From positions 41,639,562-41,703,561 of the forward strand of contig NC_054712.1 of assembly GCF_016097555.1 (NCBI RefSeq): a stretch of DNA of 64,000 nucleotides, written 5' to 3'. This DNA is from Gigantopelta aegis. Lineage: Eukaryota; Mollusca; Gastropoda; Neomphalida; Peltospiridae. Under the pieces are notes generated by a model, which searched no databases, was not told the DNA's origin, and saw only the letters and a program-made list of their open reading frames with translations. How positions within the stretch are numbered: the stretch's first letter is position 1; each line of letters opens with the position of its first letter. Position numbers and translations under genes: made by a program. Positions 21,648-58,494 of the stretch are shown here, in pieces.

Positions 21648-21738
21648 CTAGTTCGCTGCCGGGGCTATCACAAATCTGTAAAGGAGAGCGGCAGCTATAG
21701 CAATTCCCAGCGGCAGAAGCCAGCTACTCCACCCTCCA
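21648..21738 (-). CDS. CYB5A: Cytochrome b5 exon 5 (membrane anchor and stop)
   Basis: Acceptor CTCTTGTAG before 21738. Completes Asn, then [29 protein letters not shown] and a TAG stop at 21648-21650. A single hydrophobic helix close to the C-terminus is characteristic of microsomal and outer-mitochondrial b5. Confidence 0.9.
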
Positions 21739-24700
21739 CTACAAGAGAAAGAAGAACACAAAGCCATCAGTGATAATGAAAACTAGAATTATGATGATGG
21801 TAAGGATAATGATTTATGATGCAGACTTCGCTGTTTGAGGGAAGCTGTCATACTGGCTCCCCATCACTCCCCCGGGACTAAAGTCGATGACAGTCACTTT
21901 TCGCACCCTTGTTTTGGCTTCGTACACAATAAATATAGCATATCTTACCGTAATTACACTTGAAATCCATATTCCGTAAAAGGTACAATTTTTTAATCAC
22001 AAGACTTTGTTCAAACACATTCAGGTGCATTAGTAATGTTAAAATTTTTTTTTTTAAATTCAATAGCAATTTTGCATTGGAATTTTTCCAATATTGTTAA
22101 AAAGGAAACATCGTGTACCCAGTTTATGGTGATTATAAGGAGGTGCAAAGTGACGTTACAGGAATACTGACGTCATTTAAATTCAAAATTAGCTATATTA
22201 TTACAATTCTACTCCACATTAAAATAAAAACTAGTCTACTAACCTTGACCCCTGTCAAATTCTTATAGCAAGCAGACAATGCTGTTTACAGGTCGGTATT
22301 TTTTTTTTCTTCATAATCCTGGACAAAATATTAATTTTAAGTTTTAAAAAGTACCTTTTGTCAAATATATCATATCAGAAAATTACCGTTGGATATGTTT
22401 TATTTATTGTGTACGAAGCCAAAACAAGGGTCCAAAAAGTGACTGTCGTCGAACTTAAAGTCCGACCCAAACTGTTAACAACTACAATAAATTGCTCTCC
22501 TACATGTACCTTTATTTCTCATTAGATTTTACCCACAAGATACCCAGACAGAAATCTTGAAAAAAACATTACAATTACACAGATTCACATACCAGATGAT
22601 AACTGTCACCAATATCGACTTCTCTGGGATCGCATAGGGCAAAAAGCATGTAATTTTGTGCTGGTTGCCATTTTGCCTTTTTATGGAATACTCTCCATGA
22701 GGGGTGAAAGGATATGACTTAATCATCTTGTAAGGAAAGGAAAGGAAATATTTTATTTAACGACACACTCAACACATTTTATTTACGGTTATATGGTGTT
22801 GGGCATATGGTCAAGGACTACACAGATATTGAGGGAGGAAACAAGGTACTCTTTCTGATTAGCAGCAAGAGATCGTTTATATGCACCATCCCATAGGCAG
22901 AATAGCACATACCACAGCCTTTGAATTACCAGTCGTGGTGCACTGGCTGGAGAGAGAAATAGCCTAATGGGCCCACCGACTGGGACCGATCTCAAACCGA
23001 CCGCACATTAAGCGAGTGCTTTGCCACTGGGCTATGTCCCGTCCCTGTCTTGTAGGATGACTATTGTCATTTGCTTTGTTATTCATCTATAACACATCAA
23101 TCCTCTGTTATTGACATTTTCAATACTAATACTTGGTGACAGTCATCATCAATAAAATAAACAAGTTTTGTCATCTCTATCTGAACACAAAATGTCACTG
23201 GCATTCATGTACAGTACCGAAATTTAACAATTTAAAGAGTTTATAATCAAAAATCTACTTTGAAATAATCTAGTCGAGTCAGGATTATGTCATTATTATA
23301 TATGTAGTCCCCGACACCACTAGAGTACATTGATTTATTAATCATCAGCTACTGGATGTCAAATACATGATCATTTGGACACTCAGAGAGGAAACCCACT
23401 AAATGTTTTCATTAGTAGCAAGGAATCTTTTATATGTACCATCCCACAGAGGATAAGACATACCACTGCTTTTGATATACCAGTCGTGGTGCACTGGCTG
23501 GGACGAGAAATAGCCTAACTGACGGGGATCGATCCTAGACCGACCACTGGGCTACGTCTCACCCCTATAGTCTTAGAGAGGCAACATGCTACATTTTCCA
23601 TTAGTAGCAAGGAATCTTTTATATGTACAATCCCACAGACAGCATAGCACATACCACAGCCTTTGATATACTAGTTGTGATGCACTGGTTGGAATGAGAA
23701 ATAGCCCAATGGGCCCACCAAGTGTGCGCTTTACCACTTGTCTCCATCCCGCCTAGCTGTCATGTATGAAATACAAGCCTTTCCCCAGGATATTTTTAAA
23801 GGCACTTAAGAATTCAGTGTCAGTTTAACGCATATATACAAGTATCTGTTCTCAATCAAGCCAAATTAAGACAGGTGTGTTAGTAGTCAAACCTGTCAAT
23901 GTTTAGTCGAGAGAAAGCTGATGTTTGTTGAAAAAGCATGAGCAGAGGTGCAGGAATGGATAATTATTTCACTAACCTGCCGGACCAAAATCAACTAAAA
24001 TGTACTAGCCTGCCAGTATTTCTACTAGTTCGCCAGCCTATAGAACAATATATTATTGTTTAACAATATTATAATGTACACTGGTCTTCACTTCAAACGA
24101 TAGATATATATATATATTTGACAAAAACAATATTAAGGACACTTAGTGATCAACATCACATGGCAAATAAAATCAAGTCCTAAACCTTGATTGACAAAAA
24201 AATAAATTTTGAAATAGCAATCGACCGTTGTCAAAGGAAAGGGTGTTGAGGGTCTTGCACCTAATTAGGTATTAAGGACATGTTTCATCTATTAGAGTTG
24301 TGGATACCAGTGTACTGTTATGTTTCATCTATTAGAGTTGTGGATACCCGTGTACTGTTATGTTTCATCTATTACAGTTGTGGATACCAGTGTACCGTTA
24401 TGTTTCATCTATTAGAGTTGTGGATACCCATGTAATGTTATGTTTCATCTATTAGAGTTGTGGATACCCGTGTACTGTTATGTTTCATCTATTAGAGTTG
24501 TGGATACCCGTGTACTGTTATTTTTCATCTATTAGAGTTGTGGATACCTGTGTTATGTTTCATCTATTAGATTTGTGGATACCCATGTACTGTTATGTTT
24601 CATCTATTAGAGTTGTGGATACCAGTGTACTGTTATGTTTCAAAAGTTGTTACAACCAACAACTAATTGTCATCCACGTCCAATTAACGCTAAGCGGCAA

Positions 24701-24959: not shown

Positions 24960-25010
<51 letters not shown>

Positions 25011-28000
25011 ACAATTGTATCTTGAGAATCCCACCCTGGTGACCCTGGTGTTACCAGAATACATGATATCAAGCACTGAATTATGTTACGCTTTCATGTA
25101 CCTACTTGCTTTTAGGTGCAGCTGGCGTGGGACCAGTGTTTGGCTGAAAAAGAAAGAAATTTGTTTATTCATTATAAAAAACACTAAAATATTTTTTTAA
25201 AAACCCAAGACTTGTTACATTAATAAAAAAAAACATCCACCTAAAATAGTTGATCTGTTTTCCCCTGGATTGATCTGACTATCCCAACAGCTTTTAAAAC
25301 AAACATGTAACTGATACACCTTCAGGAGTGGGAGGGAGGAACCATATGCCAACACAATAAATCTAGACATAAACCATGTTGTGAATTACTCCCCCCTCTC
25401 CCCCAACTTCCCATACCATAACACAAAAAATCTAGACATAAACCATATTGTTAATTACAACCCCCCTCCTCACCGCTTCCCATAGCTTAATACAATAAAT
25501 CTAGAAATAAACAATGTTGTGAATTACTTCCCCTTAACGGCCCATGGCCCAACAATAAACCTAGACAAGCCATGATGTAAATACCTCCCTTCACATCTCA
25601 TAACGCAACAGCAGGGTTTGAACGTAATATAAATTGCTGCAGGTCATGAGTATCACCAACAGCACAAAAGTGCCGTCATTAGCTCCTCATTGATGGCAAA
25701 ATGTTTACGCCTGATGTACATTATCTGCCAGTATATAACATTAATACATTTAAAATATTTCTACAAAAAAAAAAAAACCACCTTTCAGTCTTATTTATTT
25801 GCTGCAAAGAAAAAAAGAAAGAAATGTTTTATTTAATGATGCACTCAACACATTTTATTTACGGTTATATGGCGTCAGACATATGGTTAAGGACCACACA
25901 GATTTTGAGAGGAAACCCGCTGTCGTCACTATATGGGCTACTCTTCCGATTAGCAGCAAGGGATCTTTTATTTGCGCTTCCCACAAACCATGGCCTTTGT
26001 TGAACCAGTTATTGATCACTGGTCGGTGCAAGTGGTTTACACCTACCCACTGACCCTTGCGGAGCACTCACTCAGGGTTTGGAGTCGGTATCTGGATTAA
26101 AAATTCCATGCCTCGACTGGGATCCGAACCCAGTACCTACCAGCCTGTAGACCGATGGCCTAACCATGACGCCACCGAGGCTGGGGCCCTATTTTCGAAG
26201 CCATCTTAGCACTACGAAATCGTAAAACCGTCGTAGGTTGTGACGTCACTACAGCGCACGCCATAGTGACGTCATAGCTTACGATGATTTCACGATTTCG
26301 TAGGCTAAGATAGCTTCGAAAATATGGGCCCTGGTTATTATTTGCTGCAAAAGTCAGTTTCAAAGATACATTGCTGTGGGCAGACTTTAAATTGCCGTCA
26401 GTGGGGCTTTTCAACCATGTCAATTTTGAGACAAATTCTCAAGTTTGAGCCCTGCAAAACCATGACGCATGTTGTAAAATACCTCCCCTCACTTAATAGT
26501 AGCCCAACATAATAAATCTAGGAACAAACCATGACAAAAGTTGTTAATTACCTCCCCTCATTTAATAGTGGCCCTACATAATAAATCTAGGAACAAACCA
26601 TGACGAAAGTTGTTAATTACCTCCCTCATTTAATAGTAGCCCTACATAATAAATCTTTATACAAACCTGTATATCTTCGTTCCTTTTTTCTGACTGAAAG
26701 AAACAAGAAAAATAGGAGTAACTTCATGTTACAGCAATCTCGACAAACTAAAACATAAAAAAAGACCACTCACTTTAGGTTTTTTCACAAACAATGAATG
26801 TAATTTAATTAATTTTAAAAATAAGAATTAAAAAATACTGATTTGCAATGGACATTATGGCCAATTCATATTTACAACAAACTCACAGTTGACTTTCCAA
26901 GAAAAATAAGAATTGTGGGAATACTGCTACAGAGAAATACATACTGTACAGAGTTTCATAACTCAGTCAAAAATGGGAGAATCGCTATGAAAGGCAAACT
27001 TGATCTGCTACTCTACAATGTACATGATAAAGCTAAACACACAATTTTAGTCCAATATCTGGAGGCATTGCAAATTTTTCAGGGTTTTATCACCTGTTTC
27101 TAAATCACCTACATGTATGTTTCTAGACACCGATAATGGGCACCATTCCCCACCATTCTACAGAGGCTATGTCGTTTTTCATTCCCACTTTTGGAGTAAA
27201 AAATTTCCAATCTGAATGTAAATCTCTTTCACTTGATAAACCTTCCTTCCCCAATAACATAATGCACGATAGATATATTTATCTGAATACACACAAGTAC
27301 ATGTATATACATATATACAGTATTACTTGTTTAATTCTAAATTGGTTTAATAAGATGTTTCTGAAATGAAACAAAGTTTCCAATGTTTATTAAAATGATG
27401 CTAAAATTCCCAATTTCATAGCCATGGGTGTCAAATCAAATTTTATAAATAAAATCCTGATTAAAAATAATAATTGAAGTCTGCAAAACTATATGTGGGA
27501 TGAACCAAAACAAACCCTAAAACCATTCAATTAAAATTTTTAATTTAATGAATTTAAAAAAAAAAATTACATTCATAGATGTACACTCATAGATGTAACT
27601 ATAAACCACTTTCATTGATCTAGAACTTAGTTTTAAAATTGAGCTAAATGCATAATTCAACACTGACACAGCGTCGTCAGAAAAGTGATCATACTCAAGG
27701 TTTGCTTTTTTACTTTGTAAAGGCAAGAAAAAAATGGGAAAGATAACATCTAAAACTTACGGCCTGTACTTCACCAACATAATAATCCTTCATCAATTCA
27801 CGAGCATCGGCAGAATGGCCTACATCTTCGAATGCTTCCGTCGCATCGCCACCTGTAGATACAAACACTGTTATAGCAGTGAGCAGACTATCACCAAATG
27901 AAGAAAGAAGGAAGGAAATGTCTTATTTAACGACACACTCAACACATTTTATTTATGGTTATATGGCGTCGGACATATGGTTAAGGACTACATATATATG

Positions 28001-31000
28001 GAGAGAGGAAACCCACTTTTGCCACTTTGTGGGCTACTCTTTTCGATTAGCAGCAAGGGATATTTTATATGCACCATCCCACAGACAGGATAACACATAC
28101 CACAGCCTTTGATATACCAGTCGTGGTGCACAGGTTGGATTGAGAAATAGCCCAATGGGCCCACAGACAGGGATCGATCCCAGACCGACCCTGCTTCAAG
28201 CGAATGTTTTACCATTTGGCTATGTCTCGTCCCTATATCACCAAATGAAGTATAAATTAATTAGGGTTTAAGATGCATGCCACAAATTAATAGAAATGTT
28301 CTATCTTGATCAAAAAAATCTGTAGCCAAATTCAAGTAATATTTAGCTAAAGATAATTATTTTTTAAAAATAGCTATACACATACAAACGGCATACAGTT
28401 TTCGAATTAACTTCTGGCGAACGTCACATTCCCTAATCAAATGAAGTCATCAATCACATCACATGAGTCGCATTTCATAAAGATAAAATGACAACATTCA
28501 GGAGTAATATTTTAGTAGTCTAACAGGTACATCCATAAAATATCATCAGACAATGTTTACCAAATTCCTTTTTGAGACCAGACCTGCACACTTCTACCCA
28601 CCTACCCGTTCATCAGACAATGTCTACACAAGACCTGCACACTTCTACCCACCTACCCATTCACCAGACAATGTCTACACAAGACCTTACACTTCTACCC
28701 ACCTACCCGTTCATCAGACAATGTCTACACAAGACCTGCACACTTCTACCCACTTACCGGTTTATCAGACAATGTCTACACAAGATCTTACGCTTCTACC
28801 TACCTACCCATTCATCAGACAATGTCTACACAAGATCTTACGCTTCTACCCACTTACCTGTTCATCAGACAATGTGTATACAAGATCTTACACTTCTACC
28901 CACCTACCTGTTCATCTGACAATGTCTACACAAGATCTTACACTTCTACCCACCTACCTGTTCATCAGACAATGTCTACACAAGATCTTACATTTCTACC
29001 CACCTGCTTGTTCTATCAAAACTTCTTCTCCTCCAGGATGCTGCAAAACAAAAACAAAAATACACAAATATAAAATAAAACATTCATTAGCGAAAAAAGA
29101 TTACGATAAATCCTTACAGGGAATTATCCAGCCATTCTAAAAATTCCAAATATAAATTTAATTATGTTTGTTGTAAGAAATAAAGTTAACAGTTGTGTAC
29201 TGTATTATTCAGTGGCCTGAAAAAATATCCCAAATTGATTTACTTGCCCTAATTTTCCCACTCCCTGCAAATATGGCTCCCTGGCAAAAAAAATCCTGGA
29301 TAAATCTCTGCCTTGAAGAGACATCTTCCTCGATCAGAGGCCACGTCTCAAAAAGAAAAAGATACACCACTTGTCATTTGTCTATCCAAACCAGGATTCA
29401 AACAATGTTAAAGGGACATTCCCGAGTTTGCTGCAATTTTTAAGATGCTATAGACTATCAAAGACTTTTTAACGATTGATGACTTTTTACCACCAAGCTT
29501 TATCCCGCCCCCTGTGCATGTGCAATTCATATCCTAAACTTGAGTCGCACACAAAACGTGCATATAGTGATAGTACTGTTGTCACGTGAGATAGAACAAT
29601 ACACCATGCTGCACGGAATCGTTCATTACATGTTTATAAAAAAAATAACAATAATAATAATAAAAAAACAAAAATAAGGACATGTGCGGACACATTATTT
29701 AAACATAATTTGGTGGTGGGGGAGGGAGGAAGGAGTTTTTTATTGAACGAAACACTCAGCATGAAACACTTTTCCACAGACAGGATAGTACATTCCACCG
29801 CCTTTGATAAACCAATTGTGGGACACTGGTTGGAACAGAAAAAAGCCCAGTGGTAGACATCTACTGAGCTGGATAGATCCTGCGACCGCATCACCTAGGC
29901 GAGGGCTTTTACCACCGAGCTTTATCCTGCCCCCTGGCCATTGGGTTTCACAAGTATATATTTTATTTTATCACAGAATGCTAAAACAACATTACCATCA
30001 GACCAATATAGGCATATATAAACTTAATATACAATTTTTTTTTAGATTAGTGCCCATCTTAATACATTTCAATTTTCAATACATGTGATAGACCACCCCA
30101 CCCACCCCCAACTCTTTTGAGATGTTCGTAAGGTTGACACGAAAGGCAAATGTTTAATATTTTTACAAGACACGGGGAAAATAAAACAAACTACAAATAA
30201 GAATAAATGAATAAAAAATTTGAGATATGAAAAAAAAACAGCGTTTTGAAATGCATGTTTTATGTAACATACATTGTATGTCGCTTAGCACGTGCAAGTC
30301 TCTACCTGCATGCTAATGTACTGTACTGACAAGCTGTCAATCAATATCATGCTACAAGTTCGTTATTGGATGGGCTGCTACAATTCATTATATTGGGGAA
30401 GCACCGTATACAGCATACAGTGTCGACTGACGTGACATCGGGCGAGATATCTCGCCTGCAGTACTCAGAAGGTTAAGTGAGATTGACAGGTCGACCTTAC
30501 CCCCTCCCTCCCCTCAAAGAAATTACGGTTGGCTAGTTTTTAGTAATTTGGATTGTATAAAATTTAAAAGAAAACTTATTTTGTAAATTATATTTATATG
30601 CACTAAGTTAAAGTTATTGAACACCCCTCGAAATATCGAGTGAGACCCGAGTCAGACCCATCCAATTACTTTAACTTAGTGCATATAAATATAATTTACA
30701 AAATAAGTTTTCTTTTAAATTTTATAAATATAATTTACAAAATAAGTTTTTGTCAAAGTCTGTTACAAATTCAAGAAATGTATTTTAAATGTTTAATCCC
30801 CTAAAATATAAATACCTGTCTCAAAATCGTTTCGGGACGTTTAGGTTAAGGTGGGACTAATTCAATACCAACAAAAACACATTCTTTTATTTCAGTGAGA
30901 AAACTTTAATTTAAAAAACAACACTTGTCCAACAAGTTGTCTCTGAACTCCGGGCCGAATTGTCTCGCGGTGGGCCGGGTTGTCTCAGAACTCTGGGCCG

Positions 31001-43832: not shown

Positions 43833-43875
43833 GGCATGGCTCTCTAACCTTTCCCCATTACTGTGTTCGTTTGAA

Positions 43876-44050
43876 CAGGGCTAGATCTAGGTGAGCAGAA
43901 TTAACTGTTGATCTTCAAAAGTTGCAGAAACTGTGTTGTAACAAAATATCAATTATAACATGAATTATTTTGCCAAATTAAAATAAAATTTGCCAGTTGT
44001 TTTTAAAATTCGCAGTTGGTGAATTTGATGACAGCCAGAGCTAGCCGTGG
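43876..44050. mobile_element. hAT-like MITE, diverged
   Basis: Left end CAGGGCTAGATCTAGGTGAG. Right end (GACAGCCAGAGCTAGCC) resembles the inverted end seen at 6454-6643 and 57103-57302. Confidence 0.45.
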
Positions 44051-44235
44051 TTCAGAAGGCTGGGAATGCTGTATTTTAACACCTGAAATTAAAAATGTCT
44101 CAAGGGAGCATGCCTAGATGTGGTTCGTAAAAATATATATAATTTCATCACCCAGACTCCTAAGTCCTAGAAAGAGAGAGTCATCCATGTTCCTTTGAAA
44201 CATTTCTAATTTCATTTTCTTTTTCTTTTTTTCAG

Positions 44236-44399
44236 GCACCGTAACTCAACTATGGAGCCGAAGACCAAGAAAGGCAAAGCATCATGGGATATTTCTCTTT
44301 CCATGACAGCCAACAACACGTTCAATCCGATTCGGAACATTGTTGACGGGATGAAGCTGACGCCAAACCCCGACAAGGACATGATTGCTCTGTCCATAG
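44236..44399 (+). CDS. TAT: TAT exon A (N-terminal part)
   Basis: Acceptor TTTTTTCAG ends at 44235; donor GTGTGT follows 44399. The first in-frame Met is at 44252 ([18 protein letters not shown], then [17 protein letters not shown]...ALSI). It ends in phase 1 with the G of Gly. Confidence 0.88.
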
Positions 44400-45635
44400 G
44401 TGTGTTCTTGTTTTTACACCACAGTGTAATGTAGGTTGTAGCATTCAGACCGGCTTCGGTGGCGCAATGGTTAACCCATCGGACTACAGGCTGGTAGGTG
44501 CAGGGTTCGCAGCCCAGTACCGGCTCCAACCCAGAGCGAGTTCTTAAGGGCCCAATTGGTAGGTGTAAGGCCATTACACCTTCTTCTCTCTCACTAACCA
44601 ATAACCAAGTAACAACTAACCCACTGTCCTGGACAGACAGCCCAGATAGCTGAGGTGTGTGCCCAGGACAGCATGTTTGAACCTTAATTGGATATAAGCA
44701 TGAAAATAAGTCGAAATGAAATGAATGTAGCGTTGATAACCATCGATGGTACATCAAAGACCACTTGATATCTCTATTAATCCACAGTTACAGGTTGAAA
44801 TTTCGGCAGTTTTCCAAACTTGGACCAAATTATGTCAACAAAAGGGATAGTACTATAGAGTAAAAAGTTTATTTTGTTTAACAATGACACCACTATAGCA
44901 CATTGATTTATGAATCATCAGCTATTGGATGTCACACATTGGTAATCTTGTTATCTTTAATCCTCGATTGCTTAGGTTGACTTGGACGAAAATAATATCA
45001 GCAAAATGGATAGTACTGTAGAGCAGGGCTTCTAGAATTTTTATAGAATTCCCCAGCCATGGGATCAGTGATTTTTAAAATGTACTAGCCACGATTACAA
45101 ATTCACTAGCCCTACTTTATTTAAAGTTAATACAGTTTTACTAAATACTAGTAATAATCAAATATGTTTCTTAACAAGGGAGATCGAGCTTAAAAACACT
45201 AACATTGGGGGGTTGGTTGGTTGGCAAGATATTTATATTTACAAAATAGATGTAACTGCAACATTTGACCCAAAACATTCACTAGCCGTCGGGCATAGCA
45301 ATAGTAGTTATTTACTAGCCCAACATGGAATATCACTAGCCATGGGGGTGGGGCCACCATAATCTAGAAGCCCTGTGTAGAGTAAACATATCTGAGGCTG
45401 TAAGAGTTAAGGTAGGCCATGAAGTGTGTGGTGGGGATATGACTGTGTGATGTTTAGGTCATTTTGAAACGTGGATTTGTTTTTGTCATCATATCATATG
45501 GGTTATTATCTACTTGCAGGGGCGAGACTGAGCCTAGTGGTAAAGCATTTGCTTGATGCTCAGTCGGTCTAGAAACGATCCCTGTCGTGGTGCAGATTAT
45601 GCTATTTCTCATTCTAGCCAGTGCACCATGACCCA

Positions 45636-45704: not shown

Positions 45705-48700
45705 CAGGGGTTCAAAAAATTTCAAAAAAATTACTTGCCACAGGGCAAGTGCCAATCAGATATTCACTTGCCCCATATATTTTTCCACTTGCCCATACTT
45801 CTTAAGGTAACCAATTGTGTTACTCCTATTTAATTTAATACAGTGCTTAATAGTGTAATAATCTTGAAAGTAATTGGTTTAATTCCACAAATAAAGAATT
45901 TTGCCAATAGGTTACAACACTTACCTAGGAAGTACTCAATGTATACGTCTGTCCAGTAGTATCAACTGTCTGCTCTATTGATTTAAACTTTATTTTTTAA
46001 ATAGTGTCCATTTGTTGATTTAAACTTTGTTATTTGTTTGGTAGTGTCCACTTGTTCATCTAAATATAATTATTGTTTCGATGTATGCCTTAGTGAACAC
46101 TTGTATGACCGTGGATGTTGTGAGATCCCTTTCCACTCATGAGCCATTCTTTTATGGCTGGCATTGGTTTAAAAATGTTTAGGAATTTTGGCCCATGTGT
46201 CATTATTGTGTGTATATTATTTTAAATTCTTTGCCCCTGAACACTTCTCTGGGGGTGTTTTTACCCTGTTAATAGCTGAGAAAAGTCTCTCGCAAACAGT
46301 CGTGGCTGGGCTCAAAGTAAACATGAGCTCTGTTACTTTGCAAATGTGTTTAAATAGTGCAGGCTTGGTAAACAACAGCCGGGAAAGGGGTGTACATCGA
46401 TTGCAGCCTTGTATTTTTAACTTATTGGGCATAATTTATTTGTTAAAAACTATTAATAAAGCAGAAAAAAATGAATATATTCATGTATGCTTAGAGGGCA
46501 TCGCACCATCACGATTACCCGTTCATTTTACACGAATGTAGACTTACATTTGCAAAGTACACATTAAGTATTTTCTGCTACAAGGTTTATTATATCTAAA
46601 CTAAAATGTCTTGCATCTTTTATAAGCATACAGTTCATAATATTTATGCTCTGTTCAAGTGAACTCGGAAATTATAAATTTGCTTTACAGCAAAGAGCAG
46701 ATTCCGGAACCACATTAACGTCTAATTTAATTTGAATATGACATTTTTAAACTGCATCCCACCTCATTTACCATGTTTGCAAGGATTAAACATTATGATT
46801 GCACACACAAGGCATGTATACTTTATTTTTATGTGAGCCGTAAAGCGTATTGGATGTTATTCCTAAGTTTGAAGATCATCGAACCGATTGCGTTCAGTGG
46901 CGAAAATTATCTATCTTAGTCGATAGTAAAAGGGGAATAACGCTAAAATTGTTATCGAACTTTTCAACACATTGTTTTCAGTTTTGGTGTGTCAACACAT
47001 TGGCAAGAGTTCCGATCATTCCAGCATTTAGGGTTAGGGTTAGTTATCCTTAGAGCATGAAAATTCCACTTGGCACGGGCGTCGGGCGATGGGATTTTTG
47101 AACCCGATATATATGGCCGTGGTATGAGCTTTCCTGTCTGTGTGATGATGTATATAACAGATCTCTTGCTACTAATGGAAAAATATAGCAGGTTATCAAA
47201 ATTACCAAATGTTTGACAACCAATAGCTGATGATTAATAAATCAGTGTACTCTAGTGGTGTCATTAAACTTTAACTTTGAACTTTGATCAGTTTCAAAAA
47301 TCAAGTGTTGAAATGAGCACATGTTTGATACCTAACGACTGTAGTTTAAACATAATAATGTGCTGAGGTGGGTTTTTTTTTTTTAACAGGAGATCCCACA
47401 GTGTTTGGAAATCTTCCCAACTGCGTGGTGGCCGAAGATGCCATCATTGAAGCTGTTCACAGCAGGAAGTGGAATGGTTATGCCCCTTCCATCGGTAAGT
47501 GGTCATTTAAGGTAGTACTAAACCAAATAACTTCCGGCTGGGTCAAAGTTCGAGGTGCACCGAACTTTTGATAGAGAAGTGAACACCACAAGTCCTGTGA
47601 TTGGTTATAAATGTGAGTGTGTTGGTTGTAAAAAATAATAGTTTCATCTGGGTAAAAAAAAATAAGCAATTTTATTTCATCTAGTACCAATGTGTCAAGT
47701 AGCCTTGTGCTTGAAACATGTATGGGGTATCTGTAAAAAAAAAGGTACTCGAATTTTGTGCGGAACTAGGGTAGTCATAGGTGCTACCCATTGTCTCAAA
47801 AACGAGCAGCGTGACCCCCCCCCCCCCCCCCCCCCCATTTTTTCTGATTCACTTTAAGTGTGAGGGGTGGTAGTATTTATATCTGTGGCATTTATGTCGG
47901 TTGATACGTTGCAGGTAGGAGTTTTAGTCTATGGGATTTAATTTGATAGTATACACGCTTAAAGGTGCACCATCATCATTATATGTGTCATGTTTCAATC
48001 TGCCTCTTCTGTCAGTAAATGGTTCATTTCAACGTGCACCATCATCATTATAAGGGTCATGTTTCAATATGCCTCTTCCATCGATAAGTGGTTCATTTAA
48101 AGGTGCACCATCATCATTATAAGTGTCATGTTTTATTCTGCCTCCTATTCTGTCAGTAAGTGGTTCATTTAAAGGTGCACTATCATTATTATAAGGGTCA
48201 TGTTTCAATATTCCCCTTCCTTTGGTAAGTGATTCATTTAAAGGTGCACTATCATCATTATAAGGGTCTCTATTCAATATGCCCCTTTCTTCAGTAAGTG
48301 GTTCATTTAAAGGTGCACTATCATCATTGTAAGGGTCTCATTTTAATATGCCCCTTCTGTTAGTAAGTGGTTCGTTTAAAGGTGCACCATCATCATTATA
48401 AGTGTCATGTATCAATCTGCCTCTTTTGTCAGTAAATGGTTCATTTAAAGGTGCACCACCATCATTATAAGGGTCTCATTTCAATATGCCCCTTCTGTCA
48501 GTAAGTGGTTTATTTAAAGATTCACTATCATCATGATACGGGTCATGTTTTAATATGCCCCTTCCTTCGGCAGGTGGTTCATTTAAAGCTGCACTATCAT
48601 CATTATAAGGGTCATGTTTCAATATGTCCCTTCCTTATGTAAGTGGATCATTTAAAGCTGCACTGTCATCATTATAAGTGTCATGTTTCAATCTGCCTCT

Positions 48701-51700
48701 TCTGTCAGTAAGTGGTTTATTTAAAGGTGCACTATCATCATTATAAGTGTCATGTTTCAATATGCCTCTTCCATCGGTGAGTGGTTTAATTAAAGGTGCA
48801 CTATCATCATTATAAGTGTTATGTTTCAATATGCCTCTTCCATTGGTGAGTGGTTCATTTAAATGTGCACTGCACTATCATTATAAGGGTCATGATTCAG
48901 TATGCCTCTTCCATTGGTGAGTGGTTCATTTAAAGGTGCACTGCACTATCATCATTATATGGGTCATGTTTCAATATGCCTCTTCCATCCGTTAGTGGTT
49001 CATGTAAAGGTGCACTATCATCATTATAAGGATCATGTTTCAATATGCCTCTTCCATCGGAGAGTGGTTCTTTTAAAGGTGCACTGCACTATCATGCCCA
49101 TTCCATCGGTAAGTGGATCATTTAAAGGTGCACTATCATCATTATACAGGTCATGTTTCAATATGCCTCTTCCATCGATAAGTGGTTCATTTAAAGGTGC
49201 ACAGCATTATCATGATATGGGTCATGTTTCAATATGCTTGTTCCATCGGTAAGTGGTTTATTTAAAGATGCACTATCATCATTATAAGGGTCATGTTTCA
49301 ATATGTCCATTCCATTGGTAAGTGGTTCATTTAAAGGTGCACTATCATCATTGTAAGTACAATAATTAATTTTTTTTTTTTTTTTTTTTTACCAGTATTT
49401 GGGATAAATAACTGAAAATTAATTTAAGCAACACATAATCTTTGCATGCATACTTTAACTCTGGAATGTCAGGATTGCAATCTGTGCTCACTCGACAGAA
49501 ACAGTAGGGGAGAAGTGAATTACTTGCAGTCTCCCGACAGTTTTGTTTTTCATGGTGAGGTCTGTATGTTTCTTCACACTGTTAAGGCCCAATTACACTG
49601 AAGAGTCGGAATAAAAAACTTCAGGGTGAAACAATAGAACTAACTAGTGTATTCCATAGATCCAACTACGCTAGACTACAGATAAGCTCAACAGTAGAGC
49701 AGTAAAACACTTATATAGAACTAGTGTATTCCATAGATCCAACTACACTAGACCACAGATCAGGTCAACAGTAGAGCAGTAAAACACTTAGATAGAACTA
49801 GTGTATTCCATAGTTCAACAGTAGAGCGGTAAAACACTTAGATAGAACTACGCTAGACCACACACTAGACAGATCAGGTCAACAGTAGAGCAGTTAGATA
49901 GAACTAGTGTATTCCATAGATCCAACTACACTAGACCACAGATCAGGTCAACAGTAGAGCAGTAAAACACTTAGATAGAACTAGTGTATTCCATAGATCC
50001 AACTACACTAGACCACAGATCAGGTTAACAGTAGAGCAGTAAAACACTTAGATAGAACTAGTGTATTCCATAGATCCAACTACACTAGACCACAGATCAG
50101 GTTAACAGTAGAGCAGTAAAACACTTAGATAGAACTAGTGTATTTCATAGATCCAACTACACAGATCAGGTCAACAGTAGAGCAGTAAAACACTTAGATA
50201 GAACTAGTGTATTCCATAGATCCAACTACACTAGACCACAGATCAGGTTAACAGTAGAGCAGTAAAACACTTAGATAGAACTAGTGTATTCCATAGATCC
50301 AACTACACTAGACCACAGATCAGGTTAACAGTAGAGCAGTAAAACACTTAGATAGAACTAGTGTATTTCATAGATCCAACTACACAGATCAGGTCAACAG
50401 TAGAGCAGTAAAACTCTTAGATAGAACTAGTGTATTCCATAGATCCAACTACACTAGACCACAGATCAGGTTAACAGTAGAGCAGTAAAACACTTAGATA
50501 GAACTAGTGTATTCCAGATCCAACTACACTAGACCACAGATCAGGTTAACAGTAGAGCAGTAAAACACTTAGATAGAACTAGTGTATTTCATAGATCCAA
50601 CTACACTAGACCACAGATCAGGTCAACAGTAGAGCAGTAAAACACTTAGATAGAACTAGTGTATTCCATAGATCCAACTACGCTAGACCACATCAGTTCA
50701 ACAGTAGAGCGGTAAAACACTTAGATAGAACTAGTGTATTCCATAGATCCAACTACACTAGACCACAGATCAGGTCAACAGTAGAGCAGTAAAACTCTTA
50801 GATAGAACTAGTGTATTCCATAGATCCAACTACACTAGACCACAGATCAGGTTAACAGTAGAGCAGTAAAACACTTAGATAGAACTAGTGTATTCCATAG
50901 ATCCAACTACACTAGACCACAGATCAGGTTAACAGTAGAGCAGTAAAACACTTAGATAGAACTAGTGTATTCCATAGATCCAACTACACTAGACCACAGA
51001 TCAGGTTAACAGTAGAGCAGTAAAACACTTAGATAGAACTAGTGTATTCCATAGATCCAACTACACTAGACCACAGATCAGGTCAACAGTAGAGCAGTAA
51101 AACACTTAGATAGAACTAGTGTATTCCATAGATTCAACTACACTAGACCACAGATCAGGTCAACAGTAGAGCAGTAAAACACTTAGATAGAACTAGTGTA
51201 TTCCATAGATCCAACTACACTAGACCACAGATCAGGTCAACAGTAGAGCAGTAAAACACTTAGATAGAACTAGTGTATTCCATAGATCCAACTACACTAG
51301 ACCACAGATCAGGTTAACAGTAGAGCAGTAAAACACTTATATAGAACTAGTGTATTCCATAGATCCAACTACACTAGACCACAGATCAGGTCAACAGTAG
51401 AGCAGTAAAACACTTATATAGAACTAGTGTATTCCATAGATCCAACTACACTAGACCACAGATCAGGTCAACAGTAGAGCAGTAAAACACTTATATAGAA
51501 CTAGTGTATTCCATAGATCCAACTACACTAGACCACAGATCAGGTTAACAGTAGAGCAGTAAAACACTTAGATAGAACTAGTGTATTCCATAAATCCAAC
51601 TACACTAGACCACAGATCAGGTTAACAGTAGAGCAGTAAAACACTTAGATAGAACTAGTGTATTCCATAGATCCAACTACACTAGACCACAGATCAGGTT

Positions 51701-53318
51701 AACAGTAGAGCAGTAAAACACTTAGATAGAACTAGTGTATTTCATAGATCCAACTACACAGATCAGGTTAACAGTAGAGCAGTAAAACACTTAGATAGAA
51801 CTAGTGTATTTCATAGATCCAACTACACAGATCAGGTCAACAGTAGAGCAGTAAAACTCTTAGATAGAACTAGTGTATTCCATAGATCCAACTACACTAG
51901 ACCACATCAGTTCAACAGTAGAGCAGTAAAACACTTAGATAGAACTAGTGTATTTCATAGATCCAACTACACAGATCAGGTCAACAGTAGAGCAGTAAAA
52001 CACTTAGATAGAACTAGTGTATTTCATAGATCCAACTACACAGATCAGGTCAACAGTAGAGCAGTAAAACTCTTAGATAGAACTAGTGTATTCCATAGAT
52101 CCAACTACACTAGACCACATCAGTTCAACAGTAGAGCAGTAAAACACTTAGATAGAACTAGTGCATTCCATAAATCCAACTACACTAGACCACAGATCAG
52201 CTCAACAGTAGAGCAGTAAAACACTTAGATAGAATTAGAAGTGATTTTTCTAAAATGCTGTGTGCCAATAAAATAAAAAATTTAATCAATCAGTATCATT
52301 TGTTTATACATGTGTATGCATGTGTGTATATGTTTATATGTGCATAAATATGCAAAGGTATACATATGTAACATGCTTAACTCTGTTTCTAGGAATATTC
52401 GCTAGAAGGGGATCATAGTAATATTATCTGTCGTCCGTGAATGGGTCTTGCAATCCCTTGCCAAAGTCTTAAGTTTATAACATTGATTCACTCAGGACAG
52501 ATAACCTGTAATTGCCATAGGTCGTTAGTTATTCTCTACACAATACCCAGTGAGTATGATCTAGAACTGTTCGTGTTGCAGGGTACGAGGTGAGCCGAGA
52601 AGCTGTTGCTAAGTATGTATCTACACCCAACGCCACAGTTGAGGCAAAGGTAGGTGTACCCAGGTAGTCCATAGTCTGTCCAGCTGTCCATGTGTATGTC
52701 CAATGTATATGTCCATTCAACTATCTGTCTGTCTGTCTGTCTGTCTATCCACCCACCCACCCATCCATCCATCCATCCATTCACCATCCATCCACCCACC
52801 ATCCATCCATCCATCCATTCATTCATCCTTCCATCCATCCATTCATCTATCCATCAATCTACCATCCATCCATCCATACTCCCACACACCCAAAACAAAC
52901 CCACTCACCCATCCATCCATCCATCCATCTTACCAGCCTCGGTGGCATCGTGGTAGGCCATCGGTCTACAGGCTGGTAGGTACTGGGCTCGGATCCCAGT
53001 CGAGGCATGGGATTTTTAATCCAGATACCGACTCCCAACCCTGAGTGAGTGCTCCGCAAGGCTCAATGGGTAGGTGTAAACCACTTGCACCGACCAGTGA
53101 TCCATAACTGGTTCAACAAAGGCCATGGTTTGTGCTATCCTGCCTGTTGGAAGCGCAAATAAAAGATCCCTTGCTGCTAATCGGAAGAGTAGTCCATGTA
53201 GTGGCGACAGCGGGTTTCCTCTCAAACTCTGTGTGGTCCTTAACCATATGTCCGACGCCATATAACCGTAAATAAAATGTGTTGAGTGCGTCGTTAAATA
53301 AAACATTTCTTTCTTTTT

Positions 53319-53350: not shown

Positions 53351-55354
53351 ATCATCAGTATATTCATTCATCCACCCACCCATCCATCCATCCATTCATC
53401 CATCCAATCATTTAACTTTTTTTGCATTTACCTTAGTTTGACATTCTTGCTGGGGTGTTAAATATTCATTCCTTCTTTCTATCCAATTATCAATCTATTT
53501 ATCCATCAATACATTCATCAGTCCATTTACCTAACCAACCAGCCATTCATCCATCCATCTATTAATCCACACATCAATCCATTCATCCAATCATCCATCT
53601 ATCCATCCATCTATACATTCATACATCCATCTATCCATCATCTTGTTTGATTTGGGGATATCTTTTGTTTGCTTTCATGATAATATTGTTTGATTTCAGA
53701 ATATTTCAGGATATTATCTTGTGTTTCATTTAAGGATACCGTCTTGTGTTTGTTTCAGGATATTATTCTGTGTAATGGGTGTTCTGGCTCTCTGGAGATG
53801 TGCATCACGTGTCTGGCTAGTCCGGGTCAGAACATCCTCATCCCTCGCCCGGGATTCTCTATCTACAAAACGCTGGCCGAGTCTGTCGGGATCGAAACGA
53901 AGCCCTACGATCTTCTGGTAAGTTATTATATTATTCTGTGTCTATCTCTCTCACTTGCCGGGGATTCTCCATCTACAAAACACTGGCCGAGTCTGTCGGG
54001 ATCGACACGAAGCCCTACGATCTTCTGGTGAGTTATTATATTATTCTGTGTCTATCTCTATCACTTGCCGGGGATTCTCTATCTACAAAACGCTGGCCGA
54101 GTCTGTCGGGATCGACATGAAGCCCTACGATCTTCTGGTGAGTTATTATATTATTCTGTGTCTATCTCTCTCACTTGCCGGGGATTCTCTATCTACAAAA
54201 CACTGGCCGAGTCTGTCGGGATCGACACGAAGCCCTACGATCTTCTGGTGAGTTATTATATTATTCTGTGTCTATCTCTCTCACTTGCCGGGGATTCTCT
54301 ATCTACAAAACGCTGGCCGAGTCTGTCGGGATCGACACGAAGCCCTACGATCTTCTGGTGAATTATTATATTATTCTGTGTCTATCTCTCTCACTTGCCG
54401 GGGATTCTCTATCTACAAAACACTGGCCGAGTCTGTCTGGATCGACACGAAGCCCTACGATCTTCTGGTGAGTTATTATATTATTCTGTGTCTATCTCTC
54501 TCACTTGCCGGGGATTCTCTATCTACAAAACGCTGGTCGAGTCTGTCGGAATCGACACGAAACCCTACGATCTTCTGGTGAGTTATTATATTATTCTGTG
54601 TCTATCTCTCTCACTTGCCGGGGATTCTCCATCTACAAAATGCTGGCCGAGTCCGGAGGGATTGCCACGAAGCCCTATGATCTTCTGGTGAGTGCATGTC
54701 ATTGATGTATCTCTGTGATAGCCAGTATAGACAGGTGGCTGGTAAACGAGATGTTTGATATTCAGTCCACTTAGCAGAGGTTTTTGAGTTTGCCAGTTAA
54801 TAAGTTTTATACTTTCTCCAGGGCTTTTAAATTATGGTAGCCCCACTCCCATGGCTAGTTATATTCAATGTTGGGCTAGTAAATAACTACTATTGCCATG
54901 CCAGACGGCTAGTGCAATTGTGTGTTAAATGCTGCAGTTAGGTCTATTTTGTATATATATATATATATCCTGCCCCCACCACGACCAAGTGTTTTTTTTA
55001 GCTCTATCTCCCTCTTTATGTGACATATGTGATTATTACTATTAATTAGTAAAATTATATTAACTTAAAGTAAGGCTGGTGAATTTTTAATTGTGGCTAT
55101 TAACATTTTTTAATCACTGATCCCATATGGCTAGTGGATTTTATAAAATGTTTAGAAATCCTATCTCTATCATTTTGTCTCTTTTTCTGTCTATTTGTTG
55201 CATTAATTAAAATTTAAAAAATTTGATGTGCTGTTAAACAAATATTTTCTTTTCTATGAGCAAGTTTTACTAAAAAACAAAATTGTTTTAAATTATGACA
55301 CTATTGCTGATATCATCTCTTCATGTATGTTTATTATTATTATTATTATTAATA

Positions 55355-55402
<48 letters not shown>

Positions 55403-58400
55403 CTCTTCACATATGTATAGAGGATAATAAATGAGTTGCCAGTTATTATAAAATTTATGTCCTAAGTGAAATGAAAATTATTTCACGAGGAACATAAATT
55501 TGATAATAACTGGTGCCGAGTTTGTTATTCTATTTATTATCTGAGCTATTTTTTCTCTAAAAGCCTTTATTTTTGACACATATGCACGTACATGTATAGA
55601 AATTATATAAACCACTTTATGCACTGTTCTGAGTATTGCTATAACTATAACTTTGTAATTTAATCATGTTCATAGATAATTTTCAAAAACAAAAGTTATC
55701 TTTATTCTGCTACAAAATGTATAATGAATTGCATTAAAATGACATTTTGTTATAAATTTAAAACCAAAAACAGACAGCCATAAATGCAAACTCTTTAAAA
55801 CTACATGACGTCATTTTGTGTGTTTGCCAAATCGTGATGATGTCATATTTAATACCGACAAGGTCATTGGTTTGTAAGCACCAAATCATCCAGTAGTATT
55901 CTTTTTTTAGACCAATGCATGATAATTTCTCAATGAGAAATTATGATTTTTATTTTCCCCGTTATGAGTGCTTGCTGGGGTAATAAATGGGAGAACTGGA
56001 AGGTTGACCTTGCAGTGCTGTATGTTTAATATTATTACTATATATTTACTCCCAGCCGTCGAGGAAATGGGAGGTTGACCTGGCAACGCTGGAGAATCTG
56101 ATCGACGCCAACACGGTGGCCATTGTCGTGACGAACCCGTCGAACCCGTGCGGCTCCGTGTACAGCAGGCAGCACCTGACTCACATCCTGGCCATCGCCT
56201 CCACACACAAGATCCCCATCATCGCTGACGAGATCTACGAACACTTCGTAAGAGTCTTTACCTATACACTGTATATCAAACTATAGCCTCCACACACAGG
56301 ATCCCCATCATAGCCGACTAGATCTATGAACACTTCGTGAGAGTCTTTATTATATTACATTTAGTGAAATATCTTAAAATATCAGTGAAATAAAAGTGTT
56401 ATCAGTCACTTAGTGACGAAACACATTTTAGAGTGAAAATTTCACTATTTCACTCTAAAATGTGTTATCGTCACTGTAGAAAGTGTTATCTTCACTGTAA
56501 GAAAGCCGGAACTATTTTGCTGCCGGCATTTTAAAACTAAAGGTAAATTGCCAAAAGTTATATAATAAATAGAAAATTTCATGTTTTTTGTCAAATATGA
56601 TTTATATCTCATCGTGTGAAGTTTGCAATCATATGACACTCGTCGCTTGTGTAACTCTTGAGATATGATTGCAAACTTCACTCAATGAGATATAAATCAT
56701 ATTTGACAAAAAACATTAAATATCCTCTATTTACTTACATGTATACACTGTATATTAAACTATCGCCACCACCCACAAGATCTTTACCTATACATAATAT
56801 ACACTGTAATACCATCTACAAATACCATTTTGGATGTCTAACTGTATATTGTACATTGTACAGATACAATCCAGTGTCATGGTATTTCTACAATATACAC
56901 ACGTACCTTTTATTTTAATTAATTCAGCTCATTTTTATTGTGGGAAAATATGAATATTAACTGAAATTTTACTAAAACTGTTTTTATTTTCTGTAAGTTT
57001 ATGATATATTAAACCGTGAACATGTTTTAATGCAGGTGTAAATTCGAGTGGATCGAGGGTTATACACCCAAATCAGTTTAGCAGTGTCTGTAACATCCAT
57101 TGCAGGTCTAGCTCTGTTGCTCACAAAATCTCGCCAATCGCCATATTTAAAAACAGATGGCTACTTTTATTTTAATTTGTCGGGGAAAAAATATGGCAAT
57201 AATTAATTGATATTTTGTTGAAAAATAGCTATATATTTTGTATTTTTAAGATAATTAATTTGTTGGGAAAAACCCCAAACTGATCACCCGGAGCTAGCAC
57301 TGCACTGTTTAACAGATGAATATAATAGGCTATACATTTATTTATTTATTTATTTATTATTAATATTTTATTATTATTATTATTATTATTATTTTCATTC
57401 ATTCATTCATTCATTCATTCATTCATTCATTCATTTATTTGTGGAGGTAACATGTCTTGATCAACTGAAAGAAAGAAAGAAATGTTTTATTTAACGACGC
57501 ACTTAACACATTTTATTTATGGTTATATGGCGTCAGACATATGGTTAAGGACCACACAGATATTGAGAGGAAAGCTGCTGTCGCCACTACATGGGCTATT
57601 CTTTCCGATTAGCAGCAATGGATCTTTTATTTGCGCTTCCCACAGGCAGGATAGCACAAACCATGGCTTTTGTTGAACCAGTTTTTTTATGGATCACTGG
57701 TCGGTGCAAATGGTTTACACCTACCTATTGAGCCTTGTGGAGCACTCACTCAGGGTTTGGAATCGGTATCTGGATTAAAATTCCCATGCCTCGACTGGGA
57801 TCCGAACCCAGTACCTACCAGCATGTAGACCGATAGCCTAACCACTACGCCACCTAGGCCGGTTTGATCAAGTGAATGTTTACGGTAAAGATTGCCAGTT
57901 ATATATAATGCTTTGTACTTTTGTAGTATATAATGGAATGCTGTAGATGCCATTTTTAAAGTTGTATGTCCTAATGCCGCTCTCTAAAGATGGCGAGACG
58001 TAGCCCTGCGTCAGTGGGCCCATTGGGCTATTTCTCCCTCCAGCCAGTGCATCATGACTGGTACATCAAAGGCTGTTGTATGTGCTATCCTGTCTATGGG
58101 ATGGTGTATATAAAAGATCCCTTGCTGCTAATCGAAAAGAGTAGCCCATGAAGTGACGACAGCGGGTTTCCTCCTTCAATTTCTGTGTGGTTCTTAACCA
58201 TATGTCCGATGCCATATAATCGTAACACAGGGATGGATCTTGGGTATTTTGCAGGGAGGTATAAGCACTTTAAAATAAGTAAGAAGGTGGGGTGGGGTTT
58301 TTTTCAGAACCCTCCACCCCCCACCCCCCACCCCCCCCCTGCCCTGCATTTTATCTGCATTTCTTAACATATTTTCATACAAATGTATCATTAGTTTTAT

Positions 58401-58494
58401 TTTCTCATCAGGTTTTCCCTGGTCTCCAGTACCACTCCCTAGCTTCCCTAACTGATGACGTTCCAATTCTGTCTTGTGGAGGTCTCACTAAGCG
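44252..58494 (+). CDS. TAT: Tyrosine aminotransferase, six 5' exons (44252-44399, 47390-47494, 52582-52649, 53759-53917, 56056-56247, 58412-58494); 3' part not in window
   Basis: PLP-dependent class-I aminotransferase that starts tyrosine breakdown (tyrosine + 2-oxoglutarate to 4-hydroxyphenylpyruvate + glutamate) in the cytosol. The six exons join in frame to ~251 residues. Key blocks are [64 protein letters not shown] (PLP-ring Asn), [11 protein letters not shown] (Asp binding the pyridine N) and [10 protein letters not shown], with the PLP Schiff-base lysine as the last full codon. The order and spacing fit vertebrate TAT up to about residue 281 of ~454. The N-terminus is ~29 residues shorter than human if Met 44252 is the start; the frame is open upstream to the acceptor, so an earlier exon is possible. 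The remaining exons (GWRLGW region onward) were not found before 64000. Introns contain very large minisatellites, several derived from the exons. Confidence 0.93.
44448..44722 (+). mobile_element. Type-B SINE in TAT intron
   Basis: Head CCGGCTTCGGTGGCGCAATG; body CTGTCCTGGACAGACAGCCC; end CTTAATTGGATATAAGCATG plus an A-rich tail. It begins ~50 bp after exon A. Confidence 0.88.
44858..44955 (-). mobile_element. SINE tail-2 fragment, reverse
   Basis: AAAGTTTATTTTGTTTAACA, CACTATAGCACATTGATTTA, CAGCTATTGGATGTCACAC. Confidence 0.8.
45024..45375. mobile_element. 352-bp hAT-like MITE with 7-bp target duplication
   Basis: Ends CAGGGCTTCTAGAA and (reverse complement) CAGGGCTTCTAGAT. TGTAGAG lies on both sides (45017-45023 and 45376-45382). 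A second copy in the opposite orientation is at 54819-55163. Confidence 0.8.
45635..45704. repeat. (ATGT)n/(ATATGT)n microsatellite
   Basis: Sits exactly at the interruption of the SINE, next to the hAT element. Confidence 0.95.
45705..47106 (-). mobile_element. Decayed hAT transposon
   Basis: Left end CAGGGGTTCAAAAAATTTC; reverse complement of the right end CGGGTTCAAAAATCCCATC. The - strand carries a hAT dimerisation-domain remnant. Target-site duplication is not clear because both flanks are TA/TG repeats. Confidence 0.65.
46217..46432 (-). pseudogene. hAT transposase C-terminal (dimerisation) remnant
   Basis: The frame holds [20 protein letters not shown], which matches the conserved C-terminal hAT motif (ER-x-FSA-x-N/R-R-x-KT). 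The upstream part ([17 protein letters not shown]) fits the same domain. Only 71 codons are open; the catalytic core is not recognisable, so this is a fossil. Confidence 0.72.
47390..47494 (+). CDS. TAT: TAT exon B
   Basis: Acceptor TTTTTAACAG ends at 47389; donor GTAAGT at 47495. Encodes [28 protein letters not shown] and NGYAPSI, phases 1/1. Its last ~14 bases plus donor (CCTTCCATCGGTAAGTGG) are the seed sequence of the minisatellite at 47955-49360. Confidence 0.92.
47816..47836. repeat. Poly(C) tract, ~21 bases
   Basis: Uninterrupted C run in TAT intron B. Confidence 0.9.
47955..49360 (+). repeat. ~65-bp minisatellite, ~21 units, derived from the 3' edge of TAT exon B
   Basis: The unit reads TATGCCTCTTCCATCGGTAA, GTGGTTCATTTAAAGGTGCA, CTATCATCATTATAAGGGTC, ATGTTTCA. 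Its first ~36 bases align with exon B and intron start (TATGCCCCTTCCATCGGTAA, GTGGTCATTTAAGGTA) with about four differences. Many units keep GTAAGT or GTGAGT. Frames with repeated His/Asn/Asp are artefacts. Confidence 0.93.
49361..49599. other. Intron sequence, no feature beyond a ~21-base T run at 49370-49390
   Basis: Lies between two minisatellites of the same intron. Confidence 0.6.
49600..52240. repeat. 77-bp minisatellite, ~34 units (TAT intron B)
   Basis: Unit: CTTAGATAGAACTAGTGTAT, TCCATAGATCCAACTACACT, AGACCACAGATCAGGTTAAC, AGTAGAGCAGTAAAACA. A shorter variant lacks the CTAGACCA segment and appears in patterned runs (for example 50150-50400 and 51740-52110), indicating higher-order duplication. 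Unit not similar to any exon seen. Confidence 0.95.
52582..52649 (+). CDS. TAT: TAT exon C
   Basis: Acceptor GTGTTGCAG ends at 52581; donor GTAGGT at 52650. Encodes [20 protein letters not shown] then EAK, completing the Gly split with exon B. Vertebrate TAT has SSREEIASYY...PLEAK here. Confidence 0.88.
52725..53645. repeat. (CTGT)n then (ATCC)n microsatellite, interrupted by a SINE
   Basis: ATCC-type repeats run from ~52745 to 52930 and again from 53318 to ~53645, with decay to ATCA/ATTC. The His-Pro-Ser-Ile frames are artefacts. Confidence 0.93.
52932..53314 (+). mobile_element. Type-A SINE, tail 1, inside the ATCC microsatellite
   Basis: Full-length copy from ACCAGCCTCGGTGGCATCG to GTGCGTCGTTAAATAAAACA and a CTTT tail. 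The flanks are microsatellite, so a target duplication cannot be told apart. Confidence 0.92.
53651..53758 (+). repeat. Degenerate ~35-bp repeat of the exon D acceptor region
   Basis: TTTCAGGATATTATCTTGTG, TTTAAGGATACCGTCTTGTG and the true TTTCAGGATATTATTCTGTG follow one another. Decoy CAG acceptors lie at 53697-53699 and 53707-53709, before the true one at 53756-53758. Confidence 0.7.
53759..53917 (+). CDS. TAT: TAT exon D
   Basis: Encodes [40 protein letters not shown] and [13 protein letters not shown], in phase 0 on both sides. Donor GTAAGT at 53918. Its last ~69 bases are repeated seven more times in the intron. Confidence 0.93.
53918..54700 (+). repeat. 110-bp tandem array: seven extra copies of the TAT exon D 3' end plus donor
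   Basis: Each unit has the exon part [20 protein letters not shown] then LL, a donor GTGAGT (last base of the exon part before 54031, 54141, 54251 and so on), and ~41 intronic bases ending in a pyrimidine tract (TCTATCTCTCTCACTTGCC). There is no AG acceptor before the exon part. A unit of 110 is not a multiple of three. The last unit (about 54619-54700) is the most diverged and is followed by a different intron sequence. Confidence 0.96.
54819..55163. mobile_element. hAT-like MITE, second copy (reverse of 45024-45375)
   Basis: CAGGGCTTTTAAATTATGGT, AGCCCCACTCCCATGGCTAG, TTGGGCTAGTAAATAACTAC is the reverse complement of the other copy's right half; the far end is decayed near TAGAAATCCTA. Confidence 0.75.
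55329..55401. repeat. (TTA)n microsatellite
   Basis: About 24 TTA/ATT repeats with one interruption. Confidence 0.95.
55420..55920 (+). mobile_element. ~500-bp repeat, copy 1
   Basis: Starts AGAGGATAATAAATGAG, has an inner inverted pair (CCAGTTATTATAAAATTTAT against ATAAATTTGATAATAACTGG), then AAAGCCTTTATTTTTGACAC and CATTTTGTTATAAATTTAAA; ends near GACCAATGCA. Copy 2 is at 58519-59066. Non-coding; the family name is unknown to me. Confidence 0.75.
55983..56024 (+). repeat. Diverged duplicate of the 5' edge of TAT exon E
   Basis: AAATGGGAGAACTGGAAGGT then TGACCTTGCAGTGCTG resembles exon E bases GGAAATGGGAGGTTGACCTG then GCAACGCTG. Confidence 0.55.
56056..56247 (+). CDS. TAT: TAT exon E (PLP Asn and Asp exon)
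   Basis: Acceptor TTTACTCCCAG ends at 56055; donor GTAAGA at 56248. Encodes [60 protein letters not shown] and YEHF, in phase 0. NPSNPCGS and ADEIY are the diagnostic aminotransferase motifs. Confidence 0.95.
56283..56350 (+). repeat. Extra copy of the TAT exon E 3' edge plus donor
   Basis: CCTCCACACACAGGATCCCC, ATCATAGCCGACTAGATCTA and GAACACTTCGTGAGAGTCTT match the exon's last ~50 bases and donor (...GAACACTTCGTAAGAGTCTT). The copy is non-coding because GAG became TAG. A third, shorter remnant (ATCGCCACCACCCACAAGAT then CTTTACCTATAC) is at about 56762-56797. Confidence 0.93.
56355..56735. mobile_element. MITE-like region with two hairpins
   Basis: A short palindrome is at 56427-56463 (TTTTAGAGTGAAA against TTTCACTCTAAAA). 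A second, with ~65-bp arms, is at 56568-56720 (TTTTTTGTCAAATATGATTT against AAATCATATTTGACAAAAAA). Sits between the duplicated copies of the exon E edge. Confidence 0.6.
57103..57302. mobile_element. hAT-like MITE, diverged
   Basis: Ends CAGGTCTAGCTCTG and (reverse complement) CAGTGCTAGCTCCG; interior TTAATTGATATTTTGTTG is shared with 6454-6643. Confidence 0.55.
57340..57440. repeat. (TTTA)n, (TTA)n and (ATTC)n microsatellites
   Basis: Three adjacent simple repeats. Confidence 0.95.
57465..57863 (-). mobile_element. Type-A SINE, tail 1, reverse, with 8-bp target duplication
   Basis: AAATGTTTTATTTAACGACG (tail) to TACGCCACCTAGGCCGG (head). TTGATCAA at 57457-57464 and 57864-57871. Confidence 0.9.
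57990..58226 (+). mobile_element. Type-C SINE, 3'-truncated
   Basis: GGCGAGACGTAGCCCTGCGT, body GTATATAAAAGATCCCTTGC, end GATGCCATATAATCGTAAC without the final tail. Confidence 0.85.
58412..58494 (+). CDS. TAT: TAT exon F (Schiff-base lysine)
   Basis: Acceptor TTTCTCATCAG ends at 58411; donor GTAAGT at 58495. Encodes [20 protein letters not shown] then SCGGLTK plus two bases of Arg (phase 2). The Lys corresponds to the PLP-binding lysine of vertebrate TAT. No duplicated edge follows this exon. Confidence 0.92.

What the first reader, a model, noticed from the sequence alone, without database searches (positions are those of the whole stretch)
21648..58494. Hypothesis: a genome-wide process that amplifies exon-intron boundaries into minisatellites
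Four of the intronic arrays in this window (TAT B, D, E and CYB5 exon 2) include the exon's 3' end and donor, although exons make up only ~3-4% of these two genes. All extend downstream of the exon. Two TAT exons show weaker 5'-edge copies upstream (53651-53758 and 55983-56024), and a 3' UTR repeat starts at a stop codon (4965-5190). A mechanism coupled to transcription or splicing (for example R-loop or nick repair at exon ends), or selection that retains the original exon copy, could explain this. I know of no described system that does this repeatedly in one genome.
Basis: inference. Interest (0 to 1): 0.88.

Follow-up and report, generated by a model that had tools for sequence, protein, structure and literature searches.

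The report
Repeated exon edges in snail introns
In two neighbouring genes of a deep-sea vent snail, several short DNA repeats in the introns are copies of an exon's own end and its splice signal; the same thing was described in amphioxus as "mirages", and whether this snail does it unusually often across its genome is still untested.

Summary
The window is from the vent snail Gigantopelta aegis. Introns after TAT exons 2, 4 and 5 and CYB5 exon 2 carry copies of the exon's 3' end plus donor. So 5 of 11 donors in the two genes have downstream copies and 6 show none. The claim that no such system is described is wrong: minisatellite-like duplications of exon-intron boundaries ("mirages") are reported in amphioxus Adh, globin, troponin C and PGBD5 genes. 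The "genome-wide process" is not shown. Arrays cover 26% of these genes, so counting edges inside arrays gives no excess. The own-genome search did not complete. Best reading: mirage-type arrays in a mollusc, made by ordinary local duplication and minisatellite turnover, tolerated because the first donor still serves; a donor bias is possible but unproven.

The parts
53759..53917 (+). TAT exon 4, master copy; its last ~70 bases are in the array unit
   Evidence: splice sites and protein match; units printed
53839..54693 (+). 110 bp x 7.7 array: exon 4 tail + donor + 39 bp of intron; 7 downstream donor copies
   Evidence: TRF; de novo; units and donors; divergence
56056..56247 (+). TAT exon 5
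56190..56365 (+). duplication (offset 89 bp) of exon 5 3' end + donor; reading through into the second copy meets stop codons
   Evidence: not found by TRF
56754..56782 (+). truncated third copy of the exon 5 tail
   Evidence: de novo cluster 56190-56782, alignment
47390..47494 (+). TAT exon 2
47953..49358 (+). 69 bp array whose unit holds a copy of the exon 2 end and donor; 458 bp of other sequence lies between exon and array
   Evidence: TRF; exon-anchored alignment 28.1 against shuffle maximum 14.4
29004..29040 (-). CYB5 exon 2
28572..29013 (-). 50 bp x 8.3 array starting in the last 10-15 bases of exon 2; 9 GTRRGT sites counting the true donor
26667..26693 (-).
   Evidence: G. aegis cytochrome b5-like protein P0121 and sequence
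26456..26667 (-). 69 bp array that begins at the last exon base (donor GTTTGT)
   Evidence: alignment 34.5 against shuffle maximum 13.8
53643..53773 (+). weak 21-25 bp repeats over the TAT exon 4 acceptor
   Evidence: TRF
55983..56024 (+). weak upstream copy of the exon 5 5' edge
4969..5157 (+). about three degenerate ~60 bp units over the stop codon of the left gene

Best explanation
These are 'mirage'-type arrays. A short tandem duplication of 50-110 bp happens to span an exon's 3' end and donor. It is tolerated because the first exon copy with its donor is still spliced normally and what follows is intron. The intronic copies then expand and homogenise like any minisatellite, while selection holds the master exon copy. 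Shown: the copies, their position, the annotated TAT protein using the first copy, similar inner units with a divergent terminal unit (TAT4 array), and TAT exon 4 copies with no AG directly before the exon part. Inferred: slippage or unequal exchange, neutrality, and use of the first donor in vivo. A mild mutational bias toward donors may or may not be added.
For: Three of the five junction arrays that span or abut an exon end by exon-blind search are also TRF arrays (TAT4, CYB2, CYB4), and TAT5 was found exon-blind too. Inner TAT4 units differ from each other by 2.6 of 70 bases on average, from the master by 2-5, and the last unit differs from the inner ones by 8-11; copies 2-7 alternate CACTGG/CGCTGG, a sign of a two-unit expansion step. 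Amphioxus mirages show homogenised inner units, an excluded boundary unit and, by the authors' account, regular splicing. The G. aegis TAT protein model contains the first copy. Using the second TAT4 donor shifts the frame (269 nt), and later ones or the TAT5 copy add stop codons, so the copies are expected to be harmless only as intron. Six of 11 arrays in these genes resemble none of the 12 exons, so such arrays also arise without exon edges.
Against: The master differs from the inner units only slightly more than they do among themselves. No transcript data were available.
Confidence: 0.62

Rival explanations
1. A mutational process favours 5' splice junctions: breaks, nicks or R-loops at exon ends during transcription, or the donor motif itself, seed tandem duplications there.
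Confidence: 0.2
2. Chance plus dilution: much of each intron is transposon, so old unique sequence, and with it old arrays, sits near exons; the first reader also noticed an extreme window.
For: Published repeat content of G. aegis is 64.17%. With 64% of the gene space closed, P is 0.02 for spanned donors, 0.07 without TAT5, 0.09 without TAT2, and 0.05 for any edge. Array coverage of edges is as expected.
Against: Nearness to exons alone does not explain units that include exon bases. The closed fraction is a genome-wide figure, not measured in these introns.
Confidence: 0.13
3. The repeated donors are functional: decoy U1 sites that regulate splicing or suppress early polyadenylation in long introns (the U1 idea is recalled, from no call).
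For: 7 of 7 TAT4 copies keep a donor matching 7-8 of 9 consensus bases by my crude count, and the CYB5 exon 2 array has 8 GTRRGT sites besides the true donor.
Against: Homogenisation explains this without selection; 3 of the 10 TAT exon 2 units listed have lost the GT; no expression data.
Confidence: 0.05

Closest known systems
[quoted passage not shown]
   Same: Tandem units spanning an exon-intron boundary, several genes in one genome, copies carrying splice signals, homogenised inner units and an excluded end unit (passages of PMC3087553; PMC3902484).
   Different: The amphioxus cases include clear 3' (acceptor) duplications, length polymorphism and RT-PCR data; here a mollusc, donors mostly, no allele or RNA data. 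The original 2002 paper (doi 10.1093/nar/gkf386) was not available to read.
Intron gain by internal tandem duplication containing splice sites (potato RdRp, PMC4974935; discussed for Drosophila, PMC2809761)
   Same: A tandem duplication places extra splice sites inside a gene.
   Different: There the duplication makes a new intron; here the copies lie in an intron next to the border they copy. I did not compare intron positions with relatives. PMC4974935 seen as search listing with the start of the abstract, PMC2809761 as passages.

Membership tests
amphioxus-type mirage | tandem units span an exon-intron boundary | tested here: met
   4 of 11 donors spanned, 1 more abutted
amphioxus-type mirage | minisatellite-size unit (10-160 bp in the amphioxus cases) | tested here: met
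   50, 69, 69, 89 and 110 bp
amphioxus-type mirage | inner units homogenised, boundary unit excluded | tested here: met
   tested on the TAT4 array only
amphioxus-type mirage | many copies carry splice signals | tested here: met
   TAT4 7 of 7, TAT5 1 of 1 full copy; TAT2 7 of 10 units listed keep GT
amphioxus-type mirage | normal mRNA, copies not used | tested here: inconclusive
   the annotated TAT protein uses the first copy; no RNA evidence
amphioxus-type mirage | length polymorphism, somatic instability | not testable with these tools
   single assembly only
intron gain by tandem duplication | a new intron lies inside former coding sequence | tested here: inconclusive
   the spliced TAT part is covered at full length by relatives such as P0002 and P0003 (71% identity), so no coding sequence seems lost; intron positions were not compared with relatives

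The most novel reading that the evidence does not exclude
Gigantopelta has a genome-wide mutational bias that seeds tandem arrays at 5' splice junctions, an independent counterpart of the amphioxus mirages, pointing to a shared animal mechanism coupled to transcription or to the donor motif.
Probability: 0.2. Interest if true: 0.78.

Novelty: new member of a known kind. Interest (0 to 1): 0.45.

Why it matters
In the papers that my searches listed, mirages are reported from lancelets only. Finding five junction arrays in two adjacent genes of a snail suggests that the phenomenon is broader among animals, that it supplies raw material for cryptic donors and new introns, and that a simple genome-wide test of a junction bias is worth running. 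If there is no bias it is ordinary minisatellite biology.

Tried and rejected
Coverage nulls: random positions lie in a local repeat 17.4% of the time (score 20 or more) against 4 of 10 donors (one of them in the left gene) and 0 of 11 acceptors (before CYB5 exons 4 and 5 were known). Circular shift of edges against TRF arrays: donors 3 of 11 within 15 bp, expected 3.07, P 0.65; acceptors 1 of 10, expected 2.79, P 0.98. Arrays touching an edge: 4 of 12, expected 3.0, P 0.33. With TAT2 and TAT5 added by hand, a biased addition: donors 5 of 13, expected 2.8, P 0.08; any edge 6 of 13, expected 3.2, P 0.048. I think coverage nulls understate the effect, because array growth inserts sequence and does not overwrite an exon.

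Founding-unit null: it used 12 clusters that I chose, and one search placed the edges at random. I dropped the clusters 22858-23719, 29481-29936, 43751-44499, 44827-45023, 53478-53639 and the 21 bp TRF row 56450-56505 as dispersed or simple repeats; with rough lengths for these six added the expectation is 0.52 and P 0.002. The TAT2 link was found only by an exon-anchored search; without it 3 donors are spanned, P 0.007, or 0.09 with 64% of the space closed.

Rejected: reading the TAT4 copies as alternative exons (no AG directly before them). (a self-BLAST count) was not used, and the last line printed the wrong columns. Rfam gave no match at its gathering scores. Literature searches: each seen as a capped listing. 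One search listed 2 papers: the PGBD5 lancelet paper and a Conus gene-structure paper (PMC3862624), whose two passages on repeats speak of microsatellites in introns, not of exon edges.

Full report
What the window is. The spliced TAT exons match a Gigantopelta aegis protein at 100% over 252 aa, and the CYB5 query's best hit is the cytochrome b5-like protein of the same species; both hits carry the same longest contig, 59,883,994 bases. The window therefore comes from a hydrothermal-vent snail whose published genome is 1.29 Gb with 64% repeats (passages of PMC7736800).

The observation. A repeat search that knows nothing of exons finds local repeats that begin at or inside exon ends at TAT exon 4 (53839-54693), TAT exon 5 (56190-56782, which includes a truncated third copy), CYB5 exon 2 (28572-29013) and CYB5 exon 4 (26456-26667). 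TRF finds the same ones except TAT exon 5. The 69 bp array in TAT intron 2 (47953-49358) carries the exon 2 end and donor in its unit (28.1 against a shuffle maximum of 14.4), a link found only by aligning the exon; 458 bp of other sequence now separates it from the exon, perhaps a later insertion (inference). Of 11 donors of the two genes, 5 have a downstream copy and 6 (TAT 1, 3, 6; CYB5 1, 3, 5) have none (4 and 6 of the 10 tested; TAT4). The donor of the left gene's exon at 3413 has only a weak match (9.5). Acceptor copies are weak. The stop-codon repeat is real. In the reverse test, 11 arrays against 12 exon regions, these five match their own exon region (CYB4 marginally) and the other six match none.

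Anatomy. TAT4 inner units differ by 2.6 of 70 bases on average and alternate in a two-unit pattern, the master exon copy differs from them by 2-5, and the last unit by 8-11: this looks like ordinary minisatellite turnover with an excluded end unit. All 7 downstream TAT4 donors look usable (7-8 of 9 consensus bases by a crude count), yet using the second gives an exon of 269 nt that shifts the frame, and later ones add stop codons. The units have no AG directly in front of the exon part, so they cannot easily act as exons on their own. The annotated protein uses the first copy. Hence the copies are most simply intron.

Chance or not. Arrays cover 26.4% of the 23,961 bp of the two genes, so edges inside arrays are expected, and by coverage there is no excess (for random positions). 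But an array grows by inserting copies; it cannot take in an exon edge unless its founding unit spanned it. Collapsing each array to one unit gives 12 units, 719 bp in all, in 18,009 bp: 0.38 donors should be spanned, 4 are (P 0.00025 by simulation; 0.0006 Poisson). With TAT5 removed it is 3 against 0.34 (P 0.004); with only the exon-blind links it is 3 against 0.38 (P 0.007); with the six dropped clusters added, 4 against 0.52 (P 0.002). If 64% of the space, the genome's repeat fraction, is closed to seeding, P is 0.02, or 0.07 without TAT5 and 0.09 without TAT2. Acceptors show no excess (1 against 0.35, P 0.29). All of this is post hoc and from one window. It justifies a genome-wide test and does not replace it.

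What is known. [quoted passage not shown] PMC3902484). In the rows listed by searches I saw no report of it from a mollusc; the listings are capped and the library holds open-licence papers only.

Conclusion. This is a set of mirage-type arrays in a snail: a known kind in a new phylum, as far as my searches show. The genome-wide, splicing-coupled process is possible (about 0.2) and was not tested, because the own-genome search did not answer in 21 tries.

Noticed in passing
26456-26667 and 25342-25533: Two arrays with 69 bp units that look related by eye lie towards both ends of CYB5 intron 4, the first starting at the exon 4 donor; the second matches no exon clearly.
   Followed up: partly
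53949-54608: TAT4 copies alternate CACTGG and CGCTGG, suggesting that the array last grew in steps of two units.
   Followed up: partly
56580-56718: A long inverted repeat, seen by eye, lies between the second and the truncated third copy of the exon 5 tail, as if a hairpin-like element had split an older array.
   Followed up: no
35052-35957 (-) and 41169-42546 (-): Tc1/mariner-like transposase ORF (DDE_3, HTH_Tnp_Tc3_2) and a split Tc5/pogo-like transposase (HTH_Tnp_Tc5, DDE_1).
   Followed up: partly
4354-4770, 25815-26180, 52935-53310, 57475-57860: Dispersed SINE-like element, seen by eye, with a shared motif close to GGATCCCAGTCGAGGCATGGGA, in both orientations.
   Followed up: no
60408-61163 (-): Open frame of 251 aa with no Pfam match at E 0.001.
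   Followed up: partly
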